From Rhizophagus irregularis (taxonomy: Eukaryota; Glomeromycota; Glomeromycetes; Glomerales; Glomeraceae), in assembly GCF_026210795.1 (NCBI RefSeq), contig NC_089448.1, positions 248,001-312,000 on the forward strand: a stretch of 64,000 nt of DNA, in the 5' to 3' direction. The notes under the pieces were generated by a model. That model was not told the DNA's origin. It did not search any database and saw only the letters and a program-made list of their open reading frames with translations. Shown one piece after another: positions 1 through 47,019 of this stretch (positions within the stretch are counted from its first letter, which is position 1; each line of letters opens with the position of its first letter). The position numbers were made by a program, and so were the translations under genes.

Positions 1-2948
1 AGTCCAATTTTTAAAATTCATTATTAAATTATTTATTTGACATGATTCACACCATTTGATATATATTGATGTATATATTTCACCACATGTTTCACAATGA
101 TTTTCGTTTTCAAGAACTAAAACATAATTTTTTGTATTTGGATTTTGTGATATTCCATATATTTTAGGAGGATTATAAATATAACTATCCTCATCTATTA
201 CAATATCATATGGTTTAATTTGCTAAAATATAAAAGACTTTTACTATATGTGTAAAGTATTAAAATTGAATCATAAATAAATTTGAAATTTCATACCTCA
301 TTTAAACATTCACTGGTAATATCTTGTGAATTATGTAAGTATTTTAAAGTAACTCCTTTGTTCTGAATTCTTTTCCATTTATAATAGTCATAATCTAACA
401 AACCATTCATCCAATTTGCTGAATATAATGTAAAAAAATCACCTTGGATTATTTTTTCTATATTATTAAACTGATTATATGGTATCCATTCAACTACATT
501 ATTATTATGCTCTTTAATTCTTAATTGCATATCTTGGATAACTTCATCAATTATTTCATTTCCACTAGTCCAATTTACAAAATTTTGCTTTAAATTATTT
601 ATTTGACATGGATTGCACCATTTATAACTTCTATCTTTATACAACATTCCACAGTTTTCACAACACCAATCTTGAAGTACCATAATATAATCTTTTGAGT
701 CTGGGTTTTGAGAAATTCCATATACTTTAATAATATTATTACCATAATTTTCATGATTTTCAATATTAGATAGTTCTATATGTTTATTAAATAATTTACT
801 CGCACTAATAACTTTATTACGTATACGTTTTTCATTAATATATGTTTCTATCTGTAAAATATAAGAAAATCATTAATATTAGTAAGTAAATAAATTGATA
901 AAGAAACCAGAAATCATACCTCATTTAAAAATTTATCAGTATTATACTGTAAAGTATTTAAGCTTATTAAAGTAACTTTTTCATTAGGCTTCCTTTCCCA
1001 TTTCATTTTATCATAATTATAATATAATGGACCATTTATAAATATTACTGAATACAATTTAGCATCTTCATATAACACCTCCATCTCGATATTATTAAAC
1101 TGATTAAATGGTATCCATTCGATTATTGTATCATTTAATTTATCAATCTTTAATTGCATTTGTTGTATAAATTCGTCAATTTTTTCACTTTCACTGGTCC
1201 AGCTTGTAAAATTTCGTTTTAAATCATTTATTAGGCATTGTTTGCACCATTTATACCTTATACTACTAAATATATTGTTACAGATTTCACAATAACCATT
1301 TTGAAGTACCATAATATAATCCCTTGTAGTCGGATTTTGGGATATTCCATATATTTTAATAATATCATCATATTCAACAAAATAGGATTTAATCTATTAT
1401 AATATATAAAAATATTATTAAAAGTGCGTAAAATAAATTACGAAAGATTAAAATTTATACCTCATTTAGAAATTTATTGGTCATATCATTATTTTGTTGA
1501 TTACTCAAAAATTTTAAGGCAATTTCTTTATTAGGCATTCTTTCTTGTTCCATTTTATCATAATTATATTCTAATAAACCATCTGTCCATATTGCTGAAT
1601 ATAATGGAGTGGAATTATCTTTATTAAGTTTTTTGATATCATTAAACTGATTAAATGGTATCCATTCAACTATTACATCATCATGTTTATTAATTTTTAA
1701 TTGCATTTCTTGAATTAATTCATTAATTTTTTCATTTCCACTAGTCCAATTTGCAAAATTTTGTTTTAAATTATTAATTTGACATGGGTTACACCATTTA
1801 TATCTTACATATGTATAAATTTTACCACAGTATTCACAATAACAATCTTGAAGTATGAGAATATAATTTTTTGTATCTGGGTTTTGAGATATTCCATATA
1901 ATTTAATAATATAATCTTCAATAAACTTTGGTTTATCCTGATAAAATATATAAAAAATTAATAAAGTACTTAAAATGAATAATAAGTAGCAATTAAAACT
2001 TTCATACCTCATTATAATTTAAAGAATCACCAAAATTTATTAAATTAATTTTTTCATTAGGTTTCCTTTTCCATTCCATTTTATCATAATTGTAGCATAA
2101 CGGTCCATTCATCCAAATTGCTGAATATAGTGACATGCCTATTTCTTTGATATAATTAAACTGGTCATATGGTATCCATTCAGATATTGTATCATCTAGA
2201 TTATCAATTTTTAACTGGATTTCTTGAATCAATTTATCAACTATTTCGTCTCCACTAGTCCAATTTACGAAATTTTGTTTTAAATTATTTATTTGACATG
2301 GTTTACACCATTTATGCTTTATATCTGTATAAATTTTACCACAGTTGTCACAATAACAATCTTGAAGTACCATGATATAATCTTTTGTATCTATATTTTG
2401 AGATATTCCATATATAGTAATCATATTACTATGATCGTCATTTTCAATAGTATATGATTTAGCCTGTTAAAATATAAAATAATTACTTTAATATAAAAAC
2501 AGATTAAATTATATTAAATTATAAAAGTTTCAAAAAAAAAATTTCTTACCTCTCTTAAAAATTCATTAATAATATTATTTTGTGAATCAACTAAATATTT
2601 TAAAACAACCTTTTTATTAGGAATCCTATTCCGTTCTATTTTCTCATAATTAAATTTTAATGGACCATCAACCCATAATGCTGAATTTATTATATTATAA
2701 TTATCTTTGTCCATTTCTTTAATACCATTAAATTGATTATATGGTATCCATTCAACTATCATATCATCATAATTTTCAATTTTTAGTTGCATTTCTTGAA
2801 TTAATTCATCAATTTTTTCGTTACCACTGGTCCAGTTTGTAAAATTTTGCTTTAAATCATTTATTTGACATGGTTCGCACCATTTATAGTTAATTTCTGT
2901 GTATATCTCACCACATTTTCTACATGTAATATCATCTTGAGATGACAT
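1..2948 (-). CDS. Serial zinc-ribbon / degenerate kinase N-lobe repeat protein, 3' end outside the window
   Basis: Seen: the gene reads leftward from an ATG at 2948. Exons are 2948-2550, 2463-2008, 1937-1461, 1393-920, 851-297 and 222 to beyond the left edge. Introns are 67-86 bp with GT-AG ends. Every complete exon is a multiple of three (399, 456, 477, 474, 555), so the frame runs straight through. Each module has a CxxC...WCxxC ribbon, a WTSGN-(I)D helix, the EWIPYNQFN segment, a YSAxW strand and a VxLK-like strand ending F-L-N-E. The next exon opens with the IYGISQNPDTKDYI strand and runs into a new ribbon. Known: these are N-lobe segments of the kinase family at 23351. Missing: the Gly-rich loop in all modules, and HxD, DFG and APE altogether. 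Inference: a non-catalytic repeat protein, possibly a binding scaffold. An ATG at 3005 would add 19 residues; I prefer 2948 because the ribbon follows directly. The alternative is a decaying pseudogene, but no stop is seen across six modules. Confidence 0.75.
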
Positions 2949-3528
2949 TGTGATTTCGAGTTGTTTTTTTCGAGAGAGAAATATGTTTAGTATTATGATC
3001 GGCATAAAAATGAAGTTGCATCATACAAATTTCGTGTGATGTGCGACTGATCAACAAATTAATGATTAATAGCTTTTGTTCACATTTACACCAATTTATT
3101 TGTGTGACAAATAGAACTGAAAAGAGGATGAATGGAGAATTTAATATTCTAGACGAAACTGTTTTATGATTGGCGAAACAATTTCGCCTTTTGAAGACAA
3201 ATTCCGGAACTTGGATCAAACTTCTGAAACGTGCCCAAACTTCCGTAATCTCCGGAAATATTAGAAATACACACAAAATGTGTTAAAATGGTTGCGGTAT
3301 TAACTTTGTAATTATCGTGTTATTATCATAAAATTCACGTTGCATCAGTAATTTCTGTTAAACGTCTCTGCATCTAAATTTAATGTATTACTCAATTGTT
3401 TAATATTAATACGGTGTAATAGAAATATCTGCCAATCAAATTACTTTTTAGGTTACGGGAAATTTCGGTAAGCTTAGTTCATAAAAAAAATGCCCCCAGG
3501 GAGTTTTCGAAGTTTCGGATGTGCAAAA
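2949..3528. other. Upstream region of the module-repeat gene, no gene seen
   Basis: Open frames here are short and lack recognisable motifs. The stretch immediately upstream of the ATG should hold the promoter of the gene at 1-2948. I see no clear TATA element or other motif to commit to. Confidence 0.4.
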
Positions 3529-3969
3529 TAGAGCTGCGACCCGTTACCCGTTTACACAGGTACATATCTGGGTATACTCGAGTATCTGGGTCATGGAATA
3601 GCAAATGGGCAAAAATGGGTAAATACCCATTTTGTATCCGTTTTGTGTTGATACACATATACCCGGGTATTACTCGGGATAATTACTCCAACCGAAAATT
3701 TTGCCAGAGTTAAGATGTTAACTCTGGCCAGAATTTTAATGCCGGCCAGAATTATAAAGGGTTATATGGATTTTCATCCGAATGAAATTATAATTTTTTT
3801 TTTATTTTTCAAAGTTTAAACAATATCTAAATTCAAGATTTGTATATTTATTGTAAAAAAGAATTGATATTTATCCGGGTAATACCCGGATATTATTCGA
3901 GTCATATCTGATAAAAAGGCAAACGGGTATAAACGAGTAATACCCGTTATGGAGTCGGGCAATACTTGA
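3529..3969. mobile_element. Possible hAT-like MITE rich in ACCCG/CGGGT motifs
   Basis: The left end reads TAGAGCTGCGACCCG and is followed by several acccgggt-type inverted motifs. The right end carries the same motif class in reverse (cgggtat...acccgttatggagtcggg). TAGAG fits the YARNG start known for hAT termini. The right end is diverged and I found no target duplication, so the borders are approximate. No coding capacity. Confidence 0.35.
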
Positions 3970-4313
3970 TCGACGGTAAACTAATTTCACCAAGTTTCGG
4001 GGGTTTCGCCTGCCAAAAGGTTTTGGTCTTACTCAAACATTAAATAGGATAAATAAAATTGGTCTCTTTTATTAAAAACGATCAAAAAAATGATTTTTCC
4101 ATTAAAATATAAAACAATCAGTCTCTTTATTATTAAAAATGAAAAATAATGTAAAATTTGTTAATAGCACTTTTCAATAGTAAAATAATGATATAATACA
4201 TCAAAATGAGGGTGCAATATAAGATAGATAAATGTAAATAGTTTTTTTTAAAAAAAAAAAATTGAGTGAAATTCATAGCAAATTGCTTAGGCTTCGATAT
4301 TATTAAACTTATA

Positions 4314-4727
4314 CAGTCAGACCTCTATGTACCGATATCCTATGTACCGATAATTGCCTGTACCGATAAATTTTCTATGTCCCGTTTCACAATTAATAAA
4401 AAAATCTCGTTGTACCGATATTATATATGGTTTCACGATGTAACGATACTTTTCTTTGCCCCTTTATAATTAATACATAGTAAGATGTACCGATACTTTA
4501 GGTTACACTGGCATTAATTCGGGTCAACACTATGAATTTGGCCGGAGTTAACATAAAGGTTCCATCCAAATCACATGACATTTTAATATATTGGAGTTTA
4601 CATAATGCTGGCAAGAATTGGATTTTGGCCCGCATTATGATTCACTGATGACGGTTATGTAACGATAATTTGATATACCGATATATTTTCCCCAAAACAA
4701 CAGTATCGGTACATAGAGGTCCGACTG
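4314..4727. mobile_element. Non-autonomous Tc1/mariner (pogo/Tigger-like) TIR element
   Basis: The two ends are inverted copies of CAGTCRGACCTCTATGTACC continuing into GATA, with one mismatch, and TA lies directly outside both ends. The CAGT..GACCTC start and TA duplication are typical of pogo/Fot/Tigger elements. The 414 bp contain no transposase, and GTACCGATA repeats occur at both ends. It is a MITE. Confidence 0.75.
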
Positions 4728-4899
4728 TATAATAGATAAAAACGATAAATAGAATTTTCATCTTTTTTTATTTGCTTTTTTTCAAATTAGTATTCTAAGG
4801 ATCAAATTTGCATAATTAGTTTTAATTTAAACTGGAAAATGCCAAAACAACGTGTGTTATTCATACCACCATTATTTTCACTAGGAGCTGTATAATTAA

Positions 4900-5503
4900 T
4901 TGCTGGTCCGCCACTCAACGGTACAAAATGATCGGCAATCTATAATTAATTTCGACGGACTTTTATATATTAAATACTATTGCTCTGGAATGGTGTTTGC
5001 ACTATCTTAAAAACACGTCACAACAACATAAATACTTCAAAAATTTACTAGAAAAAGGTATTACATTACCTGGGTGTATTTTCCAAACCCGGTAGGATCA
5101 TGGTGTGCCAAAAAAAAAAACTAAAAAGAAAAATAAAAAAATATATTTTTTTTTTGTTATTTTGTTAATTTGGTAAAGAAAATAATATATATTTTTCAAT
5201 AGTGTAAAAAAAACCTCGTAAAATTTGCAAAATTCGTGTATAAAAAATCTTACCTTAACTAAAATATAAGGTGGAATGGTGACTTCCTCCAAGGTAAACT
5301 TGTTAAATTTTATATCGAACAATAAAAAAATTTTTTTTTGTGGCTTATTCACGTTTAATGTTATTGATTGGCGAGTCATCGTTACATTTAAACGTGACCT
5401 TGTGGGACAAATCAACATCAAAATATGCCAATTAACGTAATTCATATAAAATCTGCGCCGGATCTACAAATTAATTTTGTACCGTTGAGTGACGGACCGG
5501 CAA
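4900..5503. mobile_element. Non-autonomous TIR element flanked by TTAA
   Basis: Inverted ends begin TTGCYGGTCCGYCACTCAAC and continue as GGTACAAAAT, with two transition differences, and TTAA borders both sides. TTAA duplications are known for piggyBac and Kolobok superfamilies. No transposase is present. The A-rich open frame inside (minus, about 5098-5445) has no known motif. The superfamily assignment is inference from the TTAA alone. Confidence 0.6.
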
Positions 5504-6357
5504 TTAAGGGATAAAGTCCTAAATAAATATAAAAAAAGATCTAAATTACCGCAGATCTATTTTAATCTTTTCATTCAATTTTGACGCTAAAGACATGAAT
5601 TAAAAATATTTTTATTACCGTAGTTACTGACAAATAATAATAGAAAAATTTCTGTATTTTTTATTTAGATTTACCTCAGTCAATGTATCTGCTAGTCTAT
5701 TCTAAAAGTCACTTTGCCTTAACGAAGTATCAGTGATATTGAATCTAACGGAAAAAATATGTAATCGATCAAGGATCAGAAATAAGAAAATAAAAATTAA
5801 GAAAACATGGTGGAGATCTCCCATATTTTGTGCAGCAATCCATTCCTTTTCACTCCAATAACAAAAATCTAAGTTAAGATTAGGAAGAAGAAATATATAA
5901 AAGTTATACTTACACTTCCTCAGGGGAGTTTTTAGTAAAATTATTATTATTAATGTCTAATGACATTAGTATGAAATAATTTATTAAGATTTACTATATA
6001 CAAAATAAAATTAAAGTTTAAAAGTATATTGATAAATTAATTACAAGAGTCTTCAAAGAATTATAATATCGATAAAATAATTTATTTGATCAAATTATTA
6101 AATAATTTTCCATTCTGGCTTTTTTTTAAAAAAAAAGTTATGCAAAAAGCTAAAAAGTTTGAAAAAGTGATATTATGAAAGAAACCTAGTATTTTTCTAA
6201 AATAGGAAAATCCAAAATGAAAACAAATTTATTAATTAAATGGAACTGATTATATATTTCAATTTGATAGAATATTTACAAAAATCTGAACTCGATAATA
6301 AATATATTAATAGCTCGTGTTTAATTTGAAATAATATTTTGTATACAGTATATATTA
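5504..6357. other. AT-rich intergenic DNA, nothing recognised
   Basis: I see no coding frame, RNA gene or repeat with clear borders. A short poly-T/poly-A inverted tract occurs near 6120-6140. Confidence 0.4.
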
Positions 6358-6690
6358 TTGAACGGGGAGTGCGGTCAGTCGGTCACAGTCCGAATGATTG
6401 GATAAAATGGTTTAGTGGCCTTAATGAAGGGCCCTGTGACGATATAGCCTCGTATTCAATAAAAATGTTATCGTTCTGACGCATTTAATAATTAGAACAT
6501 CATAATTAAGCTTTATTTAACTTTCTATAAATTTCATTTTTATGTTATTTTAATCCACTTTATAAGTTTTATTTATAAAATATCATTTACACCATATTTT
6601 TTACTCCACTTTACTATATCAATCATATATTATTGCTATGCCTAATAAAAATATCAATCTATGAATGAAAATCTGCATGATCCTATTATA
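6358..6690 (-). repeat. Dispersed repeat, short copy, with a 102-bp TIR core
   Basis: The reverse complement of this stretch matches 56530-57180 along most of its length, including the phrases AGGATCATGCAGATTTTCAT and GATATTTTTATTAG. It contains a core at 6358-6459 bordered by TA, with ends TTGAAC..GTCACAG like those of the larger core at 56751-57175. The core here is internally deleted. It lies just downstream of the F-box gene at 6698. Confidence 0.6.
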
Positions 6691-6697
6691 ACTTCTT

Positions 6698-8203
6698 TCA
6701 TATATACATAAAATGATAGTCAATTTCATCTACAAATAAACTATGTTTAAAAATTTTGATTACTCCATATTCTTGATATTTATTGATCAGTTTTTCATAA
6801 TTTTCTCTTTCATAAATAGGATCAGATGTAAGTATGGAAATTGCAGGTCTACCTCTCCATTTTTCTAAGAAATCCTCCAAGTTTTCTAAAGAAAATTTAA
6901 AATCCTCATAAAACCTAATTTCTTTTAAATTAGTCGGTGCTGATCTAACTAATATTTCTAATAAAATTTTCCCATTTTCCAAAATTTTTTCACTAGTTTC
7001 AATTTTATCCACATTATATATAATTATTAATAGTGATTTTATATTTTGACAAATCTTTAATAATTTTTCAAATTCGGCGAAATGTTCTTCTGATGGTGGA
7101 AATGTAATTGTCAAATATTCAATTGAAGGACAATTTTCATAAATTTTACGAATAAAATTGAGAGAATCTTCATTAAAGTTATTACATTCATATTCAATAG
7201 CATTTTCGGGTTTAAATAAAATTTTTTTGATACATCTTCCACTATTTTCAATCATACTAGGAATTACACTAAAACTATTCCACTCTAAACTAAGGATTTC
7301 AAGATCATGATAAACCTGTATTCTCAATTGTTCTAATTGTTCATTAGTAAACAAACGATAATCATTAAGCGTTAATATTTTTAATTTATATAATTTTGGA
7401 AGTATCTTTTGAAGTGATGTCTCTTCAATATTATCTACATATTGGAAATATATTCTTAAATAATTGAGACTATCTGCCTTTTTTTCTAACGCACAAAAAA
7501 CTTCTTCATAAGGATCTTCTGTAAGAATATCATCATCAAAATAATCTTTCCATTCAAAATGTTTTAAGTTATTCTGAACTTCAATAAACTTAACAATTCC
7601 GTGATTGGGTTTTGGGTCCGTATTAATAATGATAAGACTCTGTATATATTGACATAATGATGACAATCCATAAAAGTATGAAGAATCAATAGACGTATCA
7701 CATTTTAATTCACAAAGTGAATCCAGACGAGCCTTAGCTTCTGGAAAATAAAATATTTGATGCTTAATTGATCTCATATCTAAATACTTCAATTCTGGAC
7801 ATCTTTTCATAAAGAAATAATAAAATTTTTGTTGCATAAAAAATTGATTATAAACCAAAGGTGATCCAATAGAAATTATACTATTAATAGTATTTACATT
7901 GAAACTTCTACAATAAGAAAAATAATCAAACAAGTGTGACTGGTTTGAACCTGAAGGTATTTGGATTCTTTGATTTGTTATGAACTCTTTTATATCATCA
8001 AATAAATAGTGAAAAATAATGATGAATAAAGAACGTTTATTATTATAATTAATACCATTGTAGCGCCAAGGATTCCTCCATAAAATTGGAACCACAGTTT
8101 CACACCAAAGTCTATTGACCATTAGACATGAAAAGAGAGATTTAGAATCTTCCTGTAATTCTTCAAATATTAAGAAAAGAATATCTTTATTGAGTTTGGA
8201 CAT
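6698..8203 (-). CDS. F-box protein with LRR-like C-terminal region
   Basis: Intronless, 501 aa. The first ~45 residues are an F-box: LNKDILFLIFEEL, then SLFSCLMVNRLWC and a LWRNPW end. Known role: F-box proteins join target proteins to Skp1-Cullin-F-box ubiquitin ligases. The rest shows irregular leucine-rich segments (ELKYLDMRSIKHQIF, then a CDTSIDSSYF motif, CQNIKSLL, SAPTNLKEIRF, WRGRPAISIL). These align by eye with the genes at 15308, 33359, 38367, 41437 and 45421, so this is one recent subfamily. The ATG is the shared MSKLNKD start. The upstream block at 8370-8465 is shared with those paralogs. No break is seen. Confidence 0.9.
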   Translation of the reverse strand: MSKLNKDILFLIFEELQEDSKSLFSCLMVNRLWCETVVPILWRNPWRYNGINYNNKRSLFIIIFHYLFDDIKEFITNQRIQIPSGSNQSHLFDYFSYCRSFNVNTINSIISIGSPLVYNQFFMQQKFYYFFMKRCPELKYLDMRSIKHQIFYFPEAKARLDSLCELKCDTSIDSSYFYGLSSLCQYIQSLIIINTDPKPNHGIVKFIEVQNNLKHFEWKDYFDDDILTEDPYEEVFCALEKKADSLNYLRIYFQYVDNIEETSLQKILPKLYKLKILTLNDYRLFTNEQLEQLRIQVYHDLEILSLEWNSFSVIPSMIENSGRCIKKILFKPENAIEYECNNFNEDSLNFIRKIYENCPSIEYLTITFPPSEEHFAEFEKLLKICQNIKSLLIIIYNVDKIETSEKILENGKILLEILVRSAPTNLKEIRFYEDFKFSLENLEDFLEKWRGRPAISILTSDPIYERENYEKLINKYQEYGVIKIFKHSLFVDEIDYHFMYI

Positions 8204-8369
8204 TCTTAATTCAGAAAAAAAAATAAAAATAAGATAGCTTAAAAAAAAAATCTTTTTACAACTAAAACTTTAAAGTATTTTCAAAATGATTTTTACAAGT
8301 ACAAAAAAAAAATACAAATAAAAGTACTTTTTTATATTACCGGAAATCCAACTCCGATCAATTTGCTAA

Positions 8370-15059: not shown

Positions 15060-15307
15060 ATATTTTTAACCGAAGTTGGATCATGAACGTCATGTGGAAC
15101 GTCTGATCATCATAATGGTCGCACAGGGAGCCTATTTATTATTAACTCCTTTTTTTGAAATTTTTTTCTTTCTTTTTTATTTTTTTTTTAAAAAAAAAGA
15201 AAGAAAAATTATTGTATAACATTTTGTAATAATAAATACCCGAAAAAATTTTCAATTATAGAAGATTTATTTTTAAAAATCAATTTTCGTTATTTTTGGA
15301 TAAAAAA
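15060..15307 (+). promoter_or_regulatory. Upstream region of the plus-strand F-box gene with the conserved block
   Basis: Read on the minus strand, 15070-15128 gives CTGTGCGACCATTATGATGA followed by TCAGACGTTCCACATGA, the same block seen before the other subfamily members. A T-run/A-run inverted pair (about 15150-15208) lies between the block and the ATG, as it does before several paralogs. Function is inferred from conservation of position only. Confidence 0.5.
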
Positions 15308-16783
15308 ATGTCAAAACTCAATAAAGATATTCTTTTCTTAATATTTGAAGAATTACAAGATGATTCGAAATCCCTCTTTTCATGTCTAATGGTTAATAGA
15401 ACTTGGTGTGAAATTGTAATTCCAATTTTATGGAGGAATCCTTGGTGTTATGACATTAAGTATTATAATAAAAGTTATTTATTTGCAATTATTGTTTCTT
15501 ATTTATCAGATGATATTAAAGAATCTCTAACGAAACAAGGAAGTCAATTACCGTTAGTTTCATATCAAGTACTTTTATTTGATTATTTATCTTTTTGTAG
15601 AAGTATTAATGTTAAGACTATAAGAAGTATAACTTCTATTGGATCTTATATGACTTATAATCAATTTCTTTTACAACAAGAATTTTATAGCCTCTTTATG
15701 AAGAAATTTCCAGAGTTAAAGTATTTGAATATGAAATCTATTAAACATCAAATATTTTATTTTCCAGAAGCTAAGTTTCGTTTTGAATCACTTTATGAAT
15801 TAGTATGTGACACATCAATAGACCCTTCATATTTTTATGGGCTGGCATGGATATGTCAACATATACATAGACTCATCGTTGTTAATGTAAACCCACAAGT
15901 TTATCATGCGATTGCTAAATTAATTAAGGTACAGAAAAATTTAAAATATTTTGAATGGGAAGATGATTATGGGTTACCCACTACCGGATCAGATCCTTAT
16001 AAAGAGATTCTTCTTGCATTAGAAAAAAAGGTAGATACTATCAACCATTTAAAATTATTCTTCATATATAAAGATCGTACATCACAAAAGGTACTTCCAA
16101 AATTTCATAAATTAAAAACATTAATAACTGATTTTGGACCTTTTAGTGAAGAACAATTAAAATTTTTTATTTATCGTGATCTTGAAATCTTTGAAATAGA
16201 TTATTATGAATTAAAAGCAGCTTCTATTATAATTGAAAATAGTGGAGGGAAATTAAAGAAAATATTTTTTGTATCATCTTATGAACTTGATGATTATATA
16301 AATAATTTTGATGATGATTCACGTATTTTTATTCGTAGAGTTTATGAAAGTTGTCCTTTAGTTGAATATTTATCACTTGTATTTCCACCATCAAAGGAAC
16401 ATTTTAATGAATTTGAAAAATTATTAAAAATTTGTCAAAATTTGAAATCATTATTTTTAATAATATATATGAATGAAGTAGAACCTGAAAAAAAATTACT
16501 TTTAGAAAATGGAGAAGAATTATTAAAAATATTAATCAGATCAGCACCAACTAATTTAAGAGAAATTAGATTTCTTTATGATGTAGAATTTTCTTTGGAA
16601 GCTTTGGAAGAATTTTTAGAAAAATGGAGGGGTCGACCTATACTTTCCATACTTACATGTAGACCTATTTATAAAGAAGAAAATTATGTAAAATTGATTA
16701 ATAAATATAAAAATAATGGAATAATTAAAGATTTTAGATGTGAATCATTTATGAATGTAGTAAATATTAACTTCAATATATGA
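15308..16783 (+). CDS. F-box protein with LRR-like C-terminal region (plus-strand copy)
   Basis: Intronless, 491 aa from ATG 15308. The frame is open slightly further upstream, but without an ATG, and all paralogs start MSKLNKD. The F-box is in residues ~1-45 (ILFLIFEELQDDSKSLFSC, VNRTWCE, LWRNPWCYD). Subfamily landmarks follow in order: LSFCRSINV, ELKYLNMKSIKHQIF, CDTSIDPSYFYGL, LVEYLSLVFPPSKEHFNEF, ICQNLKSL, SAPTNLREIRF, WRGRP and a final IIKDFRCESF. Probable role: substrate-recognition subunit of an SCF ubiquitin ligase, target unknown. It is the only member of the subfamily in this window on the plus strand. No break is seen. Confidence 0.9.
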   Translation: MSKLNKDILFLIFEELQDDSKSLFSCLMVNRTWCEIVIPILWRNPWCYDIKYYNKSYLFAIIVSYLSDDIKESLTKQGSQLPLVSYQVLLFDYLSFCRSINVKTIRSITSIGSYMTYNQFLLQQEFYSLFMKKFPELKYLNMKSIKHQIFYFPEAKFRFESLYELVCDTSIDPSYFYGLAWICQHIHRLIVVNVNPQVYHAIAKLIKVQKNLKYFEWEDDYGLPTTGSDPYKEILLALEKKVDTINHLKLFFIYKDRTSQKVLPKFHKLKTLITDFGPFSEEQLKFFIYRDLEIFEIDYYELKAASIIIENSGGKLKKIFFVSSYELDDYINNFDDDSRIFIRRVYESCPLVEYLSLVFPPSKEHFNEFEKLLKICQNLKSLFLIIYMNEVEPEKKLLLENGEELLKILIRSAPTNLREIRFLYDVEFSLEALEEFLEKWRGRPILSILTCRPIYKEENYVKLINKYKNNGIIKDFRCESFMNVVNINFNI

Positions 16784-23350: not shown

Positions 23351-24929
23351 ATGGAAACCGAATTTAGTAAATTAAATATCTCAGGTGAAGATTCCAATCA
23401 CAAAAGTTGTTCATATTGTAACAAACCTTTTACTGAAGAATCATGGTGTAAAGAATGTGACCCATTTAGAAAAATAGAAGGATGGACCAGTGGAAATTCA
23501 GATATTGATAAGTTTATAAAAGATACAATGTATAAGCAAGTATATAGTTATAATATTCTTGAATGGGTACCATTTGATAGATTTACAGATATAAAAGAAA
23601 TTGGTGAAGGTGGATTCGCCAAAGTATATACTGCAACTTGGATTGATGGTAAATCAAATTATGATGGAAGTTGGAAAAAAAAAGAACCCGAATCTATGGA
23701 AATTGCCTTGAAAAGGCTGAATGGATCACAGAATATGTCAGATAAATATTTAAATGAAGTACGTTTTTATACTATTTTGTATCTTATTTAATTTATTTCA
23801 TTTAGGTGTTTAATATTAAATCATTTTATTTTTTATTTTATTAAAATATAGCTTAAAATACATTGGGAAATTTCTAATAAACATGGATTAAAATTTTATG
23901 GATTAACTAAATGCCCAGAAACTAAAGAATTTATGATGATTATACAATTTGCTGATAAAGGAAATTTGAGAAGTACTCTTTCAAATAACTTTAACAAAAT
24001 TATGTGGGGAACAAAAATTATGTATTTATATATTGCACTCATAGACGTAGATGATTTACATGAATTAGGATATTGCCATAAAGATTTTCATAGTGGGAAT
24101 ATTTTACTAGCTAGCGCTACTTATATTTCAGACTTTGGATTATCAGGACCAGCAAATGAACAAAAATCAGATGGTAAAGTTTATGGAGTAATGCCATATA
24201 TTGCACCAGAAATCTTAAACGGAGAACCATATACATCATCATCTGATATTTATAGTGTAGGTGTAATTATGGCTGAATTATCATCAGGAAAACCACCTTT
24301 TTACAATAAAAAACATGATTTAAGCTTAGCATTAGCCATATGTAATGGACTCAGACCAGAATTTGGAAAAGGAACTCCTGAATTTTACAAGAAATTAGCT
24401 TATAAATGCATGAATGCTAATCCAAATGAAAGACCAACAGCTTTTGAATTATACGATATATTTAAGTTTTGGAAAAATTCTATTGAAGGTAGTTATAGTG
24501 TAGTAGAAAAATTCGGTTATAAAGGAAAAGAAATCAAAGCAGCATTTGAAGAAGCTGATAAAGAAATACCAAACATCTCAACTTCATATGAAAAGAATTC
24601 TGATGCTGTATTTACTAGTAGAGCGTTTACATTTAGCAATTTATTATCAAAACCTGTTAATTCATCCATTATCACATCATATATTAATAATGAAGGTATT
24701 TTTATTTTTAAAATTTTTATTTTTACTTAAATTATTATTAACTTTATTGTTTTAATAGTTTGTGACTCTCAATTAATCGACTTGGAAGTATCTAATTCAA
24801 TACAATTAAGAGGTACTATATTAAACATAATTAATATTATACTATACATTTTAAATATTCTAACAATATTTGTATTGCTGATATTTAGATATTGACGATG
24901 AAAGTAAGGTTGATGATTTAGTGAATTAA
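23351..24929 (+). CDS. Protein kinase with N-terminal zinc ribbon, four exons
   Basis: Exons 23351-23758, 23852-24695, 24759-24812 and 24889-24929 join in frame to 448 aa. Introns are 93, 63 and 76 bp with GT-AG ends. A ribbon (C20, C23, C33, C36) precedes WTSGN at 45-49 and EWVPFDRF at 71-78. Kinase motifs: Gly loop GEGGFAKV at 85-92, VAIK lysine K121, catalytic H212-K-D214 with N219, DFG at 230-232, APE at 254-256. All catalytic residues are visible, so activity is plausible. Known: fungal tyrosine-kinase-like/RAF-like families use this architecture, and it is hugely expanded in Glomeromycota. The last exon encodes an acidic tail, DIDDESKVDDLVN. The ATG at 23351 is the first in frame. Exon 1 ends N-E in phase 0, as in the repeat gene at 1-2948. 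Confidence 0.9.
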
Positions 24930-33358: not shown

Positions 33359-34846
33359 TTATATCTTAAAGTCCATATTTACTATTTTTTCAAAATAGTC
33401 GCATATAAAATCTTTAATTACTCCATTATTTTTATATTTATTAATCAATTTTTTATAATTTTTTTCTCTATAAATATAATTGGATGTAAGTATGGAAAGT
33501 GCAGGTCGACCTTTCCATTTTTCTAAAAATTCCTCCAAAGTTTCCAAAGAAAATTCAACATCACAAATAAATCTAATTTCTTTCAAGTTAGTTGGTGATG
33601 ATCTAATTAATATTTTTAATATCTCTTCATTTTCTATAAGTAGTTCTTCTTCAGGTAGTACATCATCATTTATATGTATGGCTAATAATAATGACTTCAA
33701 ATTTTGACAAATTTTTAGTAATTTTTCAAATTCATTAAAATGTTCTTTTGATGGTGGAAATATAAGAGACAAATATTCAATTGAAAGACATTTTTCATAA
33801 ACTTTACGAATAAAAATGAGGGAATCATCATCAAAATTCCTTACATATTCATCAAGCTCATAGGGTGATCCTAAAAAAATTTTCTTTAGATGACCTCCAG
33901 TATTTTCAATTATAATAGAAGCTGCTTTTAATTCGTAATAACCTATTCTAAAGATTTCGAGATCACGAAAAACACACATTTTTAATTGCTCTTCACTTAA
34001 AGGCTCAATATTAACTATCAATGTTTTTAGTTTATAAAATTTCGGGAGTACTTTGTACAATGTGGGACATCTAAATAAGAAGTCTAATTTTAAATGGTTG
34101 ATAGTATCTACCTTTTTATCTATTGCAAAAAGAATCTCTTTGTAAGAATCTTGATCTGGCCCAGGAACATATAAAGTATCATAATCATCATTCCATTCAA
34201 AATACTTTAAATTTTTCTGAACTTTAATTAATTTAACAATCCCGTGATAATCATTTTCTGAATCTACATTATCAATAATGAGTCTCTGTATATATTGACA
34301 TTGCCATGCCAATCCATGAAAATATGAAGAATCTATCGAAGTGTCACATTTTAATTCACAAAGTGATTCAAAACGAAGCTTAGCTTCTGGTAAATAAAAT
34401 ATTTGATGTTTAATGAATCTCATATCCAAATACTTTAATTCTGGGAATTTTTTCATAAAGATGCCATAAAATTCTTGTTGTAAAATAAATTTATTATAAG
34501 ATAAAGATGATCCAATAGAAGTTATAACGTTTAAAGTATAAACATTAATGCTTCTACAAAAAGATAAATAATCAAACAAAAGTAGTTGACGTGAAACTGT
34601 CAATAGTTGAATTCCTTGTCTCGTTAGGGATTCTTTAACATCATCAGACAAGTAAGAAGAAATAATTGCAAATAAATATTTTTTAGTGTAATAATTAATA
34701 TCATAGCACCAAGGATTTCTCCATAAAATTGGAACCACAGTTTGACACCAAAGTCTATTGACCATTAGACATGAAAAGAGAGATTTCGAATCATCTTGTA
34801 ATCCTTCAAATATTAAGTAAAGAACATCTTTATTTAGTTTTGACAT
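33359..34846 (-). CDS. F-box protein, cluster member 1
   Basis: Intronless, 495 aa. The F-box (residues ~1-45) reads NKDVLYLIFEGLQDDSKSLF, then CLMVNRLWCQ and LWRNPWCYD. The subfamily landmarks CRSINV, ELKYLDMRFIKHQIF, CDTSIDSSYFHGLAW, SIEYLSLIFPPSKEHFNEF, ICQNLKSL, SPTNLKEIRF and WKGRPALSIL are all present. A Glu replaces the usual Glu/Lys pattern at EGL, a minor change. Probable SCF ubiquitin-ligase adaptor. It is the downstream-most gene of the minus-strand tandem cluster and has its own copy of the conserved upstream block. No break is seen. Confidence 0.9.
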   Translation of the reverse strand: MSKLNKDVLYLIFEGLQDDSKSLFSCLMVNRLWCQTVVPILWRNPWCYDINYYTKKYLFAIISSYLSDDVKESLTRQGIQLLTVSRQLLLFDYLSFCRSINVYTLNVITSIGSSLSYNKFILQQEFYGIFMKKFPELKYLDMRFIKHQIFYLPEAKLRFESLCELKCDTSIDSSYFHGLAWQCQYIQRLIIDNVDSENDYHGIVKLIKVQKNLKYFEWNDDYDTLYVPGPDQDSYKEILFAIDKKVDTINHLKLDFLFRCPTLYKVLPKFYKLKTLIVNIEPLSEEQLKMCVFRDLEIFRIGYYELKAASIIIENTGGHLKKIFLGSPYELDEYVRNFDDDSLIFIRKVYEKCLSIEYLSLIFPPSKEHFNEFEKLLKICQNLKSLLLAIHINDDVLPEEELLIENEEILKILIRSSPTNLKEIRFICDVEFSLETLEEFLEKWKGRPALSILTSNYIYREKNYKKLINKYKNNGVIKDFICDYFEKIVNMDFKI

Positions 34847-34919
34847 CTTTTATCCAAAAAATAATTGAAATTTTTTTAAAGGTAAATTTAGATATTTTTT
34901 CACAAAAATGTTCAAAAAA

Positions 34920-38366: not shown

Positions 38367-39890
38367 TTATAACAAATGTGGTAACATATAATATTCACAA
38401 CTTAATCCATATTTTACTACATTAATAAAAGATTCACATCTAAAATCCTTAATTACTCCATTGTTTTTATATTTATTGATCAATTTTACATAATTTTCTT
38501 CTCTAAAAATAGGTTTATATGTAAGTATGGAAAGTGAAGGTCGACCTCTCCATTTTACTAAGAATTCCTCAAAGGTTCCTAAAGAAAATTTAAAATCATA
38601 AAGAAATCTAATTTCTCTTAGATTAGTTGGTGCTGATTTAATGATTATTTTTAATAATTCTTCTCCATTTTCTGAAAGGTTTTTTTCAGTTACTTGCTCT
38701 TCCATGTCACACATAATTAATGATAATGACTTCAAATTTTGACAAACATTTAATAATTTTTCAAATTCTTCGAAGTGCTCCTTTGATGGTGAAAATGCAA
38801 GAGGCAAATATTCAATTGAAGGACAATATTGATAAATTTTACGGATAAAAGTAAGAGAATCATCATAAAAGTCATCTATATGATCAGGTTCATAAGTCCC
38901 TAATAAAATTTTCTTTAAGTGTCCTCCACTATTTTCAATTATAATAGAAGCTGTTTTCAAATTACAATAATCTATTTTAAGGATTTCAAGATCATGATAG
39001 ACACACATTCTTAATTGTTCTTCATTAGTATACCTAAAATCATTAACTATTAAGGTTTTTAATTTATAAAGCTTTGGAAGTACCTTGTGTAATGTCTGAC
39101 CAATATATACAAGGTATATTTTTAAATGATTGATAATATCTGCCTTTTTTTCTAATGCAAGAAGAATTGGATCTATAGAATTAGCTGCCTTTTTTTTATC
39201 TGGTACATAATAAATTGAAGAACTATAAGTGTAAAATTCATCTATCAATTCAAAATATTTTAAATTTTTCTGAACTTCAATTAATTTAACAACTCCAAAA
39301 TTAGCTTTTGTTTTTGCATTATTAACAACGATAATCTTCTGTATATATTGAGAAATATGTGCTAATCCATAAAAGTATGAAGAGTCAATAGAAGTATCAC
39401 ATTTTAATTCATAAAGTGATTCAAAACGAAGTTTTGCTTCTGGAAAATTAAATATTTGATGTTCAATTGATCTCATATCCAAATACTTCAATTCCGAACA
39501 TTTCTTCATAAAGAGATTGTAAAATTCTTGTTGCAAAAATAATCGATTACTTGCTGAAGATGATCCAACAGAAATTATAGATTTCATAATATTTACATTA
39601 ATACTTCTACAAAAAGATACATAATCAAATAAAAGCGATTGATGTGAAACTGACGGTAATTGTTTCATTAGGAATTTTTTTGTATCATCGGATAAATAAG
39701 AAGCAATAATTGCAAATAAATATGTTTTACTATAATAATTAATATCATGAAACCAAGGATTTCTCCATAAAATTGGAATCACGGTTTCACACCAAAGTCT
39801 ATTGACCATTAGACATGAAAATAGGGATTTCGAATCATCTTTTAATTCTTCAAAGATTAAGAAAAGAACATCTTTATCGAGTCTTGACAT
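38367..39890 (-). CDS. F-box protein, cluster member 2, with frameshift-extended C-terminus
   Basis: Intronless, 507 aa. The start is MSRLDKDVLFLIFEELKDD and the F-box core VNRLWCETVIPILWRNPW is intact. Subfamily landmarks follow (SIEHQIFNFPEAK, CDTSIDSSYFYGLAH, SIEYLPLAFSPSKEHFEEF, SAPTNLREIRF, WRGRPSLSIL). A local insertion with KKKAANS lies near residue 240. The paralogs end NVVNMDFKL; here a small change just after NVV shifts the frame, giving KYGLSCEYYMLPHLL. The shift is at the very end, so function may survive. Probable SCF adaptor. Confidence 0.88.
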   Translation of the reverse strand: MSRLDKDVLFLIFEELKDDSKSLFSCLMVNRLWCETVIPILWRNPWFHDINYYSKTYLFAIIASYLSDDTKKFLMKQLPSVSHQSLLFDYVSFCRSINVNIMKSIISVGSSSASNRLFLQQEFYNLFMKKCSELKYLDMRSIEHQIFNFPEAKLRFESLYELKCDTSIDSSYFYGLAHISQYIQKIIVVNNAKTKANFGVVKLIEVQKNLKYFELIDEFYTYSSSIYYVPDKKKAANSIDPILLALEKKADIINHLKIYLVYIGQTLHKVLPKLYKLKTLIVNDFRYTNEEQLRMCVYHDLEILKIDYCNLKTASIIIENSGGHLKKILLGTYEPDHIDDFYDDSLTFIRKIYQYCPSIEYLPLAFSPSKEHFEEFEKLLNVCQNLKSLSLIMCDMEEQVTEKNLSENGEELLKIIIKSAPTNLREIRFLYDFKFSLGTFEEFLVKWRGRPSLSILTYKPIFREENYVKLINKYKNNGVIKDFRCESFINVVKYGLSCEYYMLPHLL

Positions 39891-39997
39891 TTTTATCCAA
39901 AAAATAATGAGAGAAATGTTTTAAAGGATTAAATATCTTATAATAGAAAATGTTTTTTAAATAATCTTAAATATAATTTTACAACAACGGTTAAATA

Positions 39998-41436: not shown

Positions 41437-42915
41437 TCACAACTTAAAATCCATATTTACTACATTCATAAATGATTCACATCTAAAATCTTTAATTATT
41501 CCATTATTTTTATATTTATTAATCAATTTTACATAATTTTCTTCTTTATAAATAGACTTATATGTAAGTATAGAAAGTGCAGGTCGACCTCTCCATTTTT
41601 CCAAAAATTCTTCCAAGACGTCTAAAGAAAATTCAACATCACAAATAAATCTAATTTCTCTCAAGTTAGTTGGTGCTGATCTAATTAAAATTTTTAATAA
41701 TTTTTCTCCATTTTTTAAAAGTGAGTTTTCACCTTCTACATCATTCCAATATACAGCCAATAATAATGACTTCAAATTTTGACAAATTTTTAGTAATTTT
41801 TCAAATTCGTCAAAATGCTCTTTTAATGGTGGAAATATAAGAGACAAGTATTCAATTGAAAGACATCTTTCATAAACTTTACGAATAAAAATGATGGAAT
41901 CATCATTAAAATTATCTATATAATCATCAATTTCATATTGTGATTCTAAGAAAATTTTCTTTAAATGTCCTCCACTATTTTCAATTATAATAGAAGCTTC
42001 TTTTAATCCATAATAATCTATTTTAAAGATCTCAAGGTCATGATAAACACACATCTTTACTTGTTCTTCATCATTAAAAGGCCAAAAACTTGTTATCAAT
42101 GTTTTTAATCTACGAAATTTTGGAAGTACCTTACACAATGTTGGATTATTAACAAACATAAAATATACATTTAAATGGTTGATAGTATTTGCATTTTTCT
42201 CTAATGCATGAAGTATCTCTTTGTAAGAATCTAGTCCGGGAATATAAAAATCATGGCTATCTTTCCATTCAAAATACTTTAAATTTTTCTGAGCTTCGAT
42301 TAATTCAGCAATCCCATGATAATCATTTGGGTCTACGTTATCAACGATGAGTCTCTGTATATATTGACATAGCTGTGCTAATCCATAAAAATATGAAATA
42401 TCTATTGATGTGTCACATTTTAGTTCATAAAGTGATTCAAAACGAAGCTTAGCTTCTGGAAAATAAAATATTTGATGTTTAATGGATTTAATATCCAAAT
42501 ACTTTAACTCTGGAAATTTCTTCATAAAGATACGATAAAATTCTTGTTGCAAAAGAAATTGATTATAAGCTAAAGATATTTCAACTAAAGTTATAGAATT
42601 CATAGTATCTGTATTAATACTTCTACAATAAGATAAATAATCAAACAAAAGTAGTTTGTATGAAAATGATGGTAATTGAATTCCTTGTTTCGTTAGGGAT
42701 TCTTTAGTATCATCAGATAAATAAGAGGCAATGATTAAAAATAAATAACTTTTATTACTATACTTAATATCATAGCACCAAGGATTTCTCCATAAAATTG
42801 GAATTACAGTTTCACACCAAAGTCTATTAATCATTAGACATGAAAAGAGGGATTTCGAATCATCTTGAAATTCTTCAAATATTAAGAAAAGAATATCTTT
42901 ATTGAGTTTTGACAT
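41437..42915 (-). CDS. F-box protein, cluster member 3
   Basis: Intronless, 492 aa, MSKLNKDILFLIFEEFQDD start. F-box residues ~1-45 are intact. All subfamily landmarks are present (CRSINTDTM, ELKYLDIKSIKHQIF, CDTSIDISYFYGLAQLC, SIEYLSLIFPPLKEHFDEF, SAPTNLREIRF, WRGRPALSIL). The end IIKDFRCESFMNVVNMDFKL is close to that of the plus-strand gene at 15308, so these two may be close relatives. Probable SCF ubiquitin-ligase adaptor, target unknown. The conserved upstream block is only partly kept (43055-43120). Confidence 0.9.
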   Translation of the reverse strand: MSKLNKDILFLIFEEFQDDSKSLFSCLMINRLWCETVIPILWRNPWCYDIKYSNKSYLFLIIASYLSDDTKESLTKQGIQLPSFSYKLLLFDYLSYCRSINTDTMNSITLVEISLAYNQFLLQQEFYRIFMKKFPELKYLDIKSIKHQIFYFPEAKLRFESLYELKCDTSIDISYFYGLAQLCQYIQRLIVDNVDPNDYHGIAELIEAQKNLKYFEWKDSHDFYIPGLDSYKEILHALEKNANTINHLNVYFMFVNNPTLCKVLPKFRRLKTLITSFWPFNDEEQVKMCVYHDLEIFKIDYYGLKEASIIIENSGGHLKKIFLESQYEIDDYIDNFNDDSIIFIRKVYERCLSIEYLSLIFPPLKEHFDEFEKLLKICQNLKSLLLAVYWNDVEGENSLLKNGEKLLKILIRSAPTNLREIRFICDVEFSLDVLEEFLEKWRGRPALSILTYKSIYKEENYVKLINKYKNNGIIKDFRCESFMNVVNMDFKL

Positions 42916-43054
42916 TCTTTAGCAAAATAATTTCTTATTTTTATGGTTATTATAATAAATAACTTTTTAAAAAATTTTTCAACAATTAAAAGAAAAAGAA
43001 AAATTTTTAAGTTTCACAAAACAAATTCCAAATAATGAAATACAATTGGGAATA

Positions 43055-45420: not shown

Positions 45421-46926
45421 TCATATCTTATAGTCCAAATTTACTACATTTTTAAAACATTCGCATCTAAGATCTTTAATTACTCCATTATTTTTATATA
45501 TATTAATCAATTTTATAAATTTTGTTTTTTCATTTTTTTTATAAATAACATTACTAGTAGATGTAAGTATGGAAAGTGCAGGTCGGCCTCTCCATTTTTC
45601 TAAAAATTCTTTCAAGGCGCCCAAAGAAAATTTAACATCAAAAAGAATTCTAATTTCTCTTAAATTAGTTGGTGCTGATCTAACCAATAATTTTAATAAT
45701 TCTTTTCCATTTTCTAAAAGTGGTTCATCACCTTTTACATTATCCATTGTATATATAGCTAATATTAATGACTTCAAATTTTGACAAATTTTTAATAATT
45801 TCTCAAATTCATTAAAATGCTGCTTTGATGATGGAAATTCAAGAGACAAATATTCAATTGAAAGACACTTTTCATAAACTTTGCGAATAAACATGAGAGA
45901 GTATTCATTAAATTTTTCATGATGGTCTACATCATCAATATCATGGTGACGGTAAAGATAAATTTTCTTTAAATGTCCTCCACTATTTTCGATTATAATA
46001 GAAGCTGCTTTTAATTCATAATAATCTGTTTCAAGAATCTCAAGATCATGATAAACGCAAATTTTTAATTGTTCTTCACTGAAACTATTTAATCCAACTC
46101 TCAATCTTTTTAGTTTATGAAATTTTGGGAATACCTTTGGTGATGAGCGACTCATAAATTGAAAGATAATATTTAAATGAATGATAATGTTTGCACTTTT
46201 TTCTAATGCAAAAAGAATCTCTTTGTATAGGTCCGGTTCGAGAATAATAACTGGAAGATACCCAACATCTCTCCATTCAAAATACTTTAAATTTTTCTGA
46301 ACTCCAATTAGTTCAGCAATCCCATGAAACCCGTTTGCTTTTGTATTAACAATGATGAGTCTTTGTATATATTGAGAAATATGTGCTAAGCTATAAAAGT
46401 ATGAAGAGTCTATTGATGTGTCGCATTTTAATTCGCAAAGTGATTCAGAACGAAGCATAGCTTCTGGATGATGAAATATTTGATGTCTAATAATTGATTT
46501 CATATCCAAATACTTTAACTCTGGGAATTTCTTCATAAAAAGATGATAAAATTCTTGTTCCAAAAGACATTGCGCATGAGCTAATGATGTTGCAGTAGAA
46601 ATTATAGATTTCATAGTATCTGTATTAATACTTCTACAGAATGATAAATAATCAAACAAAAGTGTTTGGTATGAAAATGACGGCAGTCGGATTCTGTATC
46701 TCATTAGAGATTCTTTAGCATTATCAGATAAATAGGAAACAATGATTACAAATAAATACTTTTTCTTATTATAATTGATATAATAGTTCCAAGGATTCCT
46801 CCATAAAACTGGAATCACTGTTTTACACCAAAATCTATTGACCATTAGACATGAAAAGAGGGATTTTGAATCATCTCGTAATTCTTTAAATATTAATAAA
46901 AGAATATCTTCATTGAGTTTTGACAT
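45421..46926 (-). CDS. F-box protein, cluster member 4
   Basis: Intronless, 501 aa, start MSKLNEDILLLIFKELRDD. The F-box core VNRFWCKTVIPVLWRNPW is intact with several conservative changes against the paralogs. Landmarks: CRSINTDTMKSI, ELKYLDMKSIIRHQIF (one extra residue), CDTSIDSSYFYSLAH, SIEYLSLEFPSSKQHFNEF, SAPTNLREIRI, WRGRPALSILTS. An acidic HHDIDDVDHHEKF insertion lies near residue 340. Probable SCF adaptor. It is the upstream-most member of the cluster. Confidence 0.9.
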   Translation of the reverse strand: MSKLNEDILLLIFKELRDDSKSLFSCLMVNRFWCKTVIPVLWRNPWNYYINYNKKKYLFVIIVSYLSDNAKESLMRYRIRLPSFSYQTLLFDYLSFCRSINTDTMKSIISTATSLAHAQCLLEQEFYHLFMKKFPELKYLDMKSIIRHQIFHHPEAMLRSESLCELKCDTSIDSSYFYSLAHISQYIQRLIIVNTKANGFHGIAELIGVQKNLKYFEWRDVGYLPVIILEPDLYKEILFALEKSANIIIHLNIIFQFMSRSSPKVFPKFHKLKRLRVGLNSFSEEQLKICVYHDLEILETDYYELKAASIIIENSGGHLKKIYLYRHHDIDDVDHHEKFNEYSLMFIRKVYEKCLSIEYLSLEFPSSKQHFNEFEKLLKICQNLKSLILAIYTMDNVKGDEPLLENGKELLKLLVRSAPTNLREIRILFDVKFSLGALKEFLEKWRGRPALSILTSTSNVIYKKNEKTKFIKLINIYKNNGVIKDLRCECFKNVVNLDYKI

Positions 46927-47019
46927 TCTTTATGCAATAATAATGAAAAAGGCTTAGAATAAATTTCTTATAAAATATTTTTTAAAAAGGAAACTTTAAA
47001 AATGGTTTAATAAAACAAC

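What the first reader, a model, noticed from the sequence alone, without database searches (positions are those of the whole stretch)
1..2948. Gene built from at least six tandem zinc-ribbon / kinase N-lobe modules with no C-lobe
Seen: five complete exons plus a partial sixth, each a zinc ribbon plus kinase N-lobe, chained so that the beta-strand segment opening one exon runs into the next ribbon. No HxD, DFG or APE is present. A chain of half-kinases is not an architecture I know. It could bind nucleotide-free partners, act as a decoy, or titrate ribbon ligands.
Basis: partly seen in the sequence, partly recalled or inferred. Interest (0 to 1): 0.85.

Follow-up and report, generated by a model that had tools for sequence, protein, structure and literature searches.

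The report
Kinase gene with stacked half-kinases
A fungal gene strings eight inactive half-kinase units in front of one complete protein kinase, and the same unusual build recurs elsewhere in this genome, which suggests a signalling protein with a long built-in binding or regulatory chain.

Summary
'No C-lobe' is wrong: the window cuts the gene. On the same contig the frame runs on to C20:245191; exon 10 encodes a complete kinase C-lobe (HRD, DMG, APE), and module 9 before it has an intact glycine loop and VALK. The gene is eight degenerate ribbon/N-lobe modules plus one ribbon-bearing kinase: ten phase-0 exons, 1,701 aa. Ten further arrays read in depth (not a random sample) share the plan, with 5-21 modules; 11 of 11 end in a C-lobe. 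The canonical glycine loop is in 11 of 11 last modules (one by inspection) and 0 of 87 upstream modules. Between two matched nine-module arrays, upstream modules are constrained (Ka/Ks 0.37) except the nucleotide-loop stretch (1.06); other array pairs are too noisy to repeat that contrast. So this is a real, recurrent architecture: N-lobe-only pseudo-domains ahead of a kinase. A scaffold or allosteric role is inference; no transcripts were available. My ten paper searches found no description of it.

The parts
2550..2948 (-). Exon 1: ATG (MSSQDDITC...), ribbon 1, helix, beta1-beta3 of pseudo-N-lobe 1
   Evidence: Open frame, GT donor, phase 0; same N-terminal MSSQDDITC as the single-module kinase L017
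2008..2463 (-). Exon 2: beta4-beta5 completing N-lobe 1, ribbon 2, helix, beta1-beta3 of N-lobe 2 (glycine loop deleted; INLINF in place of VALKCL)
1461..1937 (-). Exon 3: beta4-beta5 of N-lobe 2, ribbon 3, helix, beta1-beta3 of N-lobe 3
920..1393 (-). Exon 4: beta4-beta5 of N-lobe 3, ribbon 4, helix, beta1-beta3 of N-lobe 4 (VTLISL in place of VALKCL)
297..851 (-). Exon 5: longer lead, beta4-beta5 of N-lobe 4, ribbon 5, helix, beta1-beta3 of N-lobe 5
1..222 (-). Exon 6, first 222 of 492 bases: beta4-beta5 of N-lobe 5, ribbon 6; it continues outside the window to C20:247731
2464..2549 (-). Intron 1, phase 0, GTAAGA..ACAG
1938..2007 (-). Intron 2, phase 0, GTATGA..TCAG
1394..1460 (-). Intron 3, phase 0, GTATAA..ATAG
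852..919 (-). Intron 4, phase 0, GTATGA..ACAG
223..296 (-). Intron 5, phase 0, GTATGA..TTAG
2868..2924 (-). Ribbon 1, CRKCGEIYTEINYKWCEPC
   Evidence: Position
2296..2352 (-). Ribbon 2, CDNCGKIYTDIKHKWCKPC
   Evidence: Position
1782..1838 (-). Ribbon 3, CEYCGKIYTYVRYKWCNPC
   Evidence: Position
1235..1291 (-). Ribbon 4, CEICNNIFSSIRYKWCKQC
   Evidence: Position
606..662 (-). Ribbon 5, CENCGMLYKDRSYKWCNPC
   Evidence: Position
40..96 (-). Ribbon 6, CETCGEIYTSIYIKWCESC. Outside the window the gene goes on with exons 7-9 (modules 7-9) and exon 10 (C-lobe) down to C20:245191

Best explanation
The stretch is the 5' part of a protein-kinase gene of an arbuscular mycorrhizal fungus (Rhizophagus irregularis, inferred). 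The gene encodes eight tandem non-catalytic modules, each a four-cysteine ribbon, a helix and a kinase N-lobe, and then one ribbon plus a complete, motif-competent kinase. Shown: the anatomy, its recurrence, the loss of the nucleotide loop upstream, and constraint on the rest of the upstream modules. Inferred origin: arrays grew by tandem duplication of one symmetric (phase 0-0) exon, founded when the beta5/hinge codons of one kinase copy were fused to the N-terminus of the next, so that each internal exon completes the N-lobe before it and starts the next. Inferred mechanism: the upstream pseudo-N-lobes no longer bind nucleotide but keep fold and surface, and act in cis as a multivalent N-lobe scaffold or allosteric regulator of the terminal kinase, docking its N-lobe or those of related kinases in this genome. 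My estimates: architecture 0.95, non-catalytic upstream modules 0.85, scaffold/allosteric role 0.4.
For: Ten in-frame phase-0 exons ending in HRD/DMG/APE. Kinase PF07714 4.1e-40 at aa 1361-1640. 11 of 11 arrays read in depth end in a C-lobe with these motifs. 100 of 108 neighbouring blocks join through GT..AG sites, all 100 in phase 0. Canonical glycine loop in 10 of 11 last modules by rule, the eleventh by inspection, against 0 of 87 upstream. CCCC in 64 of 70 modules of the ribbon arrays. Upstream Ka/Ks 0.37 [0.30-0.45] for OWN-L002, ribbon 0.20, loop stretch 1.06 [0.66-2.00]; loop excess reached by 0 of 2000 permutations; pooled over three pairs 0.42 [0.35-0.49], loop 0.92 [0.60-1.45]. Same phase-0 intron in the single-module kinases L016 and L017.
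Against: No transcript or protein evidence was available. Five of 11 arrays carry a break, the comparison array L002 among them. L004-L005 upstream Ka/Ks is 1.11 [0.64-2.16]. The loop contrast comes from OWN-L002: in L003-L006 the loop (0.67) does not exceed helix (0.67) or beta4-5 (0.93), and in L005-L008 it is the lowest region (0.32, interval open). In ribbonless arrays the beta2 Val, beta3 Ala and Lys are mostly kept, so there the non-catalytic reading rests on the glycine loop and the missing C-lobe. L015 and L018, two further arrays, show only C-lobe fragments. The structure prediction failed. Nothing tests docking or allostery.
Confidence: 0.55

Rival explanations
1. Exon-duplication ratchet: a phase 0-0 exon multiplies by unequal exchange and the extra modules are tolerated passengers. 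Selection only keeps them open and foldable so that the terminal kinase can be made; they have no function of their own.
For: Symmetric exons; modules amplified within arrays (L009 modules 4 and 13 identical over the compared stretch) and numbers differ, 5-21; five of 11 arrays broken; L004-L005 upstream Ka/Ks about 1.
Against: Uneven constraint within modules (ribbon 0.20, loop 1.06), four cysteines kept in 64 of 70 modules, and a nine-module order kept between two arrays since they split.
Confidence: 0.25
2. Recognition platform or decoy: the non-catalytic modules imitate kinase N-lobes to capture proteins of hosts, microbes or mobile elements that target kinases, and the terminal kinase signals, comparable to plant tandem kinases.
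For: Large, variable, fast-duplicating arrays across the genome; plant tandem kinase resistance genes exist (abstracts in the listing).
Against: No excess of amino-acid change outside the loop stretch between the two matched arrays. No ligand known.
Confidence: 0.12
3. Alternative-exon reservoir: transcripts use variable sets of cassette exons, giving kinases with different module numbers or different N-lobes next to the C-lobe.
For: All 100 accepted joins are phase 0, so any exon can be skipped in frame.
Against: Only the last module keeps the glycine loop (11 of 11 against 0 of 87), so upstream N-lobes are not usable alternatives for the catalytic position. Cassette skipping of upstream exons is not excluded.
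Confidence: 0.06
4. A gene made only of half-kinases, with no C-lobe.
For: No C-lobe motif in the frame inside window 1-2948.
Against: The C-lobe exon follows in frame on the same contig, as in the ten other arrays read in depth.
Confidence: 0.02

Closest known systems
Expanded protein-kinase (PF07714) repertoire of Rhizophagus irregularis
   Same: Same organism (inferred) and same Pfam family. PMC10234402 gives 2,533 kinase genes and PMC6123716 names PF07714 the commonest motif among inflated genes (passages read). Single-module relatives L016 and L017 share the exon plan.
   Different: The passages I read describe gene number, not N-lobe-only tandem modules.
Plant tandem kinase proteins (for example wheat Pm36/WTK7-TM and Lr9; abstracts in the listing)
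   Same: Several kinase-derived units in one chain with a kinase.
   Different: As I recall they combine complete kinase or pseudokinase domains; here the extra units are N-lobes only, 5-21 modules per chain counting the last.
JAK-type pseudokinase-kinase tandem (recalled)
   Same: A non-catalytic kinase-derived unit precedes the active kinase in cis.
   Different: One complete two-lobed pseudokinase in JAK; many half-domains here.
RIPK1, TAK1 and CaMK1G kinase domains (sequence matches)
   Same: Among the best solved matches of the terminal kinase (CaMK1G 3e-16, RIPK1 1.4e-15, TAK1 1.9e-15).
   Different: Distant matches that do not fix a subfamily; DMG in place of DFG here; repeated N-lobes are not known to me in them (recalled).
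Clusters of mutually exclusive exons (Dscam type, recalled)
   Same: Tandem homologous exons with one splice phase.
   Different: Each exon here spans two half-modules and only the last keeps catalytic features.

Membership tests
Protein kinase (PF07714) | Profile match above the curated cut-off | tested here: met
   138.1 bits against 23.1, aa 1361-1640 of the 1,701-aa chain
Protein kinase (PF07714) | Glycine loop, VALK lysine, HRD, DxG, APE in the last unit | tested here: met
   IGKGGFSTVYS, VALK, HRDLHTGN, DMG, APE; DMG instead of DFG
Protein kinase (PF07714) | Catalytic activity | not testable with these tools
   Needs an assay
Protein kinase (PF07714) | The same for the upstream modules: glycine loop and own C-lobe | tested here: not met
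   0 of 87 upstream modules in 11 arrays keep KG[GC]F; in this gene no C-lobe lies between modules
TKL group of kinases | Nearest kinases are TKL | tested here: inconclusive
   RIPK1 and TAK1 are among the best solved matches, but the first is CaMK1G; no kinase-group tree was made
Tandem kinase / pseudokinase-kinase protein | Two or more complete (two-lobed) kinase or pseudokinase domains | tested here: not met
   Modules 1-8 are N-lobes without a C-lobe
Four-cysteine zinc ribbon | Two CxxC knuckles | tested here: met
   9 of 9 modules of this gene; 64 of 70 modules of the nine ribbon arrays
Four-cysteine zinc ribbon | Membership of Zn_ribbon_NOB1 (PF08772) | tested here: inconclusive
   Whole chain 48.3 bits against a cut-off of 24.9, but exons 2 and 4 alone give 16.3 and 16.5, and exons 3 and 5 none
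Four-cysteine zinc ribbon | Zinc binding | not testable with these tools
   Needs protein
Cluster of mutually exclusive exons | Interchangeable exons that all keep the function of the segment | tested here: not met
   Glycine loop only in the last module
Cluster of mutually exclusive exons | One exon per transcript | not testable with these tools
   No RNA data available

The most novel reading that the evidence does not exclude
The kinase N-lobe alone has become a repeat-protein unit: a self-standing, nucleotide-blind bead, chained up to about 20 times in front of a live kinase to form a cis-acting multivalent platform that docks or allosterically tunes N-lobes of the same very large kinase family; a way of building signalling hubs that I know from nowhere else.
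Probability: 0.3. Interest if true: 0.8.

Novelty: new variant of a known kind. Interest (0 to 1): 0.6.

Why it matters
Kinase domains are usually treated as two-lobed folds. Here the N-lobe is repeated without its C-lobe in several genes of one genome (11 arrays read in depth, 5-21 modules), and in the best-matched pair of arrays selection keeps the ribbon, helix and strands but not the nucleotide loop. If these genes are expressed, they are a natural test of whether an N-lobe can be a free-standing module and of how N-lobe contacts regulate a kinase, and they may account for part of the kinase inflation of arbuscular mycorrhizal fungi. In practice kinase profiles miss the architecture: Pfam reported one kinase stretch in the 1,701-aa chain.

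Tried and rejected
Tandem Repeats Finder gave no rows in window 1-6000. A Pfam scan with wrong coordinates failed and was redone. The structure prediction of exon 3, with the five window exons as alignment, gave mean pLDDT 43.7 and pTM 0.38 and is not used; no fold search was run. Rfam on window 1-8000: no match. Ribbon as the essential element: rejected because two arrays show none. Mutually exclusive exons: disfavoured. Intron divergence OWN-L002 (JC 0.241 over 456 aligned bases, 7 of 8 introns tried, L002 introns picked by a rough pattern) is only a rough yardstick. My rule mislabelled the last module of L011: the true one, split in the search, was recognised by eye. Kwon et al. 2019 on pseudokinases is not held and was not read.

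Rows dropped before counts: only matches of at least 60 profile positions reaching profile position 140 entered the module counts, so split or partial modules (for example in L005, L006, L011) are missing from the 98. Five C4 sites of the 100 listed were left out of the C1-C3 run count. Only 100 of 869 pattern sites were listed and 150 of 4301 candidates were scored, so genome-wide numbers are lower bounds. L002-L008 were picked for dense matches, and L009, L011 and L012 for runs: not a random sample. L013-L018 were picked as apparently isolated sites; they were read only and, apart from L016 and L017, are not in the counts or the tree. Terms such as alpha-C glutamate, spine residues, JAK and Dscam are recalled, from no call.

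Full report
WHAT IS THERE. The window is G000:C20:248001-312000; G000 has 146,748,485 bases in 32 contigs. That is close to the R. irregularis DAOM197198 assembly of 32 scaffolds and 146,773,001 bp in PMC10234402 (passages and outline read), so I take the organism to be R. irregularis (inferred).

THE GENE GOES ON. The neighbouring 10 kb (L001) continue the frame: exon 6 is completed, exons 7-9 follow, and exon 10 (C20:246048-245191) encodes a full C-lobe with VHRDLHTGN, SDMGL and APE. Module 9, directly before it, has IGKGGFSTVYSAIW and VALK. The chain is 1,701 aa in ten phase-0 exons. By eye, a GTAAGT donor at the stop codon and a short downstream frame suggest a small eleventh exon that would alter only the last residues; this was not tested. 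Pfam finds one kinase stretch (PF07714, 4.1e-40, aa 1361-1640) and ribbon similarity (Zn_ribbon_NOB1, 1.1e-12 for the whole chain; single exons fall below the cut-off or give none). Upstream modules have no kinase match of their own but are 49-57% identical to module 9.

ANATOMY OF A MODULE. An internal exon reads: end of alpha-C, beta4-beta5 (YGISQNPDTKDYIMVL), CxxC-x11-CxxC, a helix (NWTSGNEKIDELIQEMQLKI), EWIPYNQF, beta1-beta3, and a glutamate (by position the alpha-C glutamate, recalled knowledge) as the last codon. The intron after that glutamate codon is also present in two single-module kinases of the same genome, L016 and L017; L017 also starts with MSSQDDITC. So one exon completes the previous N-lobe and begins the next. 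The join VLQ-D-x-Y-C-x-x-C looks like beta5 of one copy fused to the start of another (MSSQ-DDITC-x-x-C); this origin is an inference.

IT RECURS. The exon query gave 150 matches (150 scored of 4301 candidates), in 67 same-strand runs, 37 of them with two or more exons. An exact pattern for YGISQNP gave 869 sites against 0 for the reversed control. On contigs C1-C3, 95 sites form 36 runs, 18 of them with two or more sites. I read ten further arrays in depth, chosen for dense matches. 11 of 11, the window's included, end in a C-lobe exon with HRD, DMG and APE. Module counts by my rule are 9 (own), 9, 9, 6, 8, 11, 5, 7, 21, 7 and 6, together 98. Of 108 neighbouring block pairs, 100 join through GT..AG sites, all 100 phase 0 although other phases were allowed. 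The 8 failures lie in five arrays (L002, L005, L006, L008, L011); six, this one among them, are unbroken. L009 (C2) is an unbroken run of 21 ribbonless modules plus a C-lobe. Of six loci picked as apparently isolated sites, L016 and L017 are single-module kinases, L013 is a distant single kinase, and L014, L015 and L018 turned out to be arrays; L014 has a strong C-lobe match (201 bits), while L015 and L018 show only C-lobe fragments in the stretch read.

ONLY THE LAST N-LOBE LOOKS CATALYTIC. By column rule, KG[GC]F is present in 10 of 11 last modules and 0 of 87 upstream ones. The eleventh (L011) was mislabelled; its true last module, split in the search, reads IGKGGFATIYS. The loss takes different forms in different groups of arrays: four-residue loop deletions (L003, L006), loss of VYS (most modules of L004, L005, L008), GKND-like loops (most of L009, L011), RKDE (L007 modules 2-4). 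The VALK lysine is kept in 79 of 87 upstream modules (7 replaced, 1 gap). The beta3 alanine survives in 5 of 61 upstream modules of ribbon arrays but in 18 of 26 of ribbonless ones, and the beta2 valine in 3 of 61 and 23 of 26. An N-lobe without a C-lobe is not expected to phosphorylate in any case (established kinase structure).

SELECTION. L002 (C14) matches this array module for module; eight of nine pairs are reciprocal best, module 8 is not. Upstream Ka/Ks is 0.37 [0.30-0.45]; by region: ribbon 0.20 [0.10-0.37], beta4-5 0.30, helix 0.30, beta2-3 0.41, glycine-loop stretch 1.06 [0.66-2.00]. The excess of Ka in the loop was reached by 0 of 2000 permutations, also with the two modules of differing gap pattern left out. 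Pooling three array pairs (OWN-L002, L003-L006, L004-L008): upstream 0.42 [0.35-0.49], loop 0.92 [0.60-1.45], other regions 0.30-0.39; OWN-L002 supplies more than half of the codons. Against this: L004-L005 upstream is 1.11 [0.64-2.16]. In L003-L006 the loop (0.67) does not stand out from helix (0.67) or beta4-5 (0.93). In L005-L008 the loop is the lowest region (0.32, interval open), and in L009-L011 it is 0.46. Last-module loop estimates (19 codons in OWN-L002; 57 pooled, 0.50 [0.15-2.11]) are uninformative. C-lobe intervals include 1 in four of five pairs, not in OWN-L002 (0.32 [0.19-0.52]). L002 has an in-frame stop in module 8, whose Ka/Ks is the highest of the nine (0.64). Intron divergence (JC 0.24, rough) is close to the loop Ka (0.216).

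HISTORY. In a tree of 98 modules and two single-module kinases (95 columns, 26 of 96 inner branches open), the OWN and L002 last modules pair together, away from their upstream modules; the same holds for L003/L006 and L004/L005/L008. Seven of eight upstream OWN modules pair with their L002 counterpart, those of modules 6 and 7 below the starred support level; module 8 is unresolved. The L011 row marked terminal is mislabelled (see above). So in these groups upstream modules multiplied among themselves, and the nine-module order seems older than the C14/C20 duplication.

MECHANISM. Shown: a kinase with its catalytic motifs behind many non-catalytic, constrained modules. Inferred: the modules serve as a multivalent scaffold or allosteric chain through N-lobe surfaces, with the ribbon as an optional extra contact. 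The main rival is an exon-duplication ratchet with tolerated passengers; uneven constraint speaks against it but does not exclude it. Assignment to the TKL group is tentative: the best solved matches are CaMK1G, then RIPK1 and TAK1.

LITERATURE. Ten searches listed no paper whose title or shown abstract describes N-lobe-only tandem modules. Passages read in PMC8647823, PMC10234402, PMC6123716 and PMC3886924 speak of kinase expansion only. Most subscription papers and all supplements were outside my reach, so absence from print is not established.

Noticed in passing
window 6698-8269, 15236-16783, 33359-34849, 38367-39920, 41437-42918, 45421-46929; L001 3-1124 and 3170-4696: A second tandem family around the kinase array: long open frames beginning much like MSKLNKDILFLIFEELQDDSKSLFSCLMVNRLWCE, six in the window and two in L001. 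Of the two scanned, one gave a weak F-box-like match (23 bits, just under the cut-off) and one none.
   Followed up: partly
window 23852-24730 (+): Another kinase C-lobe exon (PF00069 2e-27; HKD in place of HRD), separate from the array.
   Followed up: no
window 58445-61116 (+): Retrotransposon pieces: RNase H-like and integrase H2C2 matches.
   Followed up: no
L009+L010 (G000:C2:1367001-1383000): An unbroken array of 21 ribbonless N-lobe modules plus a kinase C-lobe. Spacing and identical or near-identical modules (4/13, 5/14) suggest that a block of nine modules was duplicated within the gene.
   Followed up: partly
G000:C14:713-715 kb and 721-723 kb: Four consecutive exon matches with identical scores, 7,589 bases apart, indicate a very recent duplication of part of an array.
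   Followed up: no
L005, L006, L008, L011, L015, L018: Frame breaks and fragmentary C-lobes: some arrays may be pseudogenes or hold assembly errors.
   Followed up: no
L017, minus strand, 1399-2074 counted on the reverse complement: A diverged neighbouring kinase on the other strand (NWTPGNNDIDNLIKN...RGGFSEIYTASW) beside the single-module kinase.
   Followed up: no
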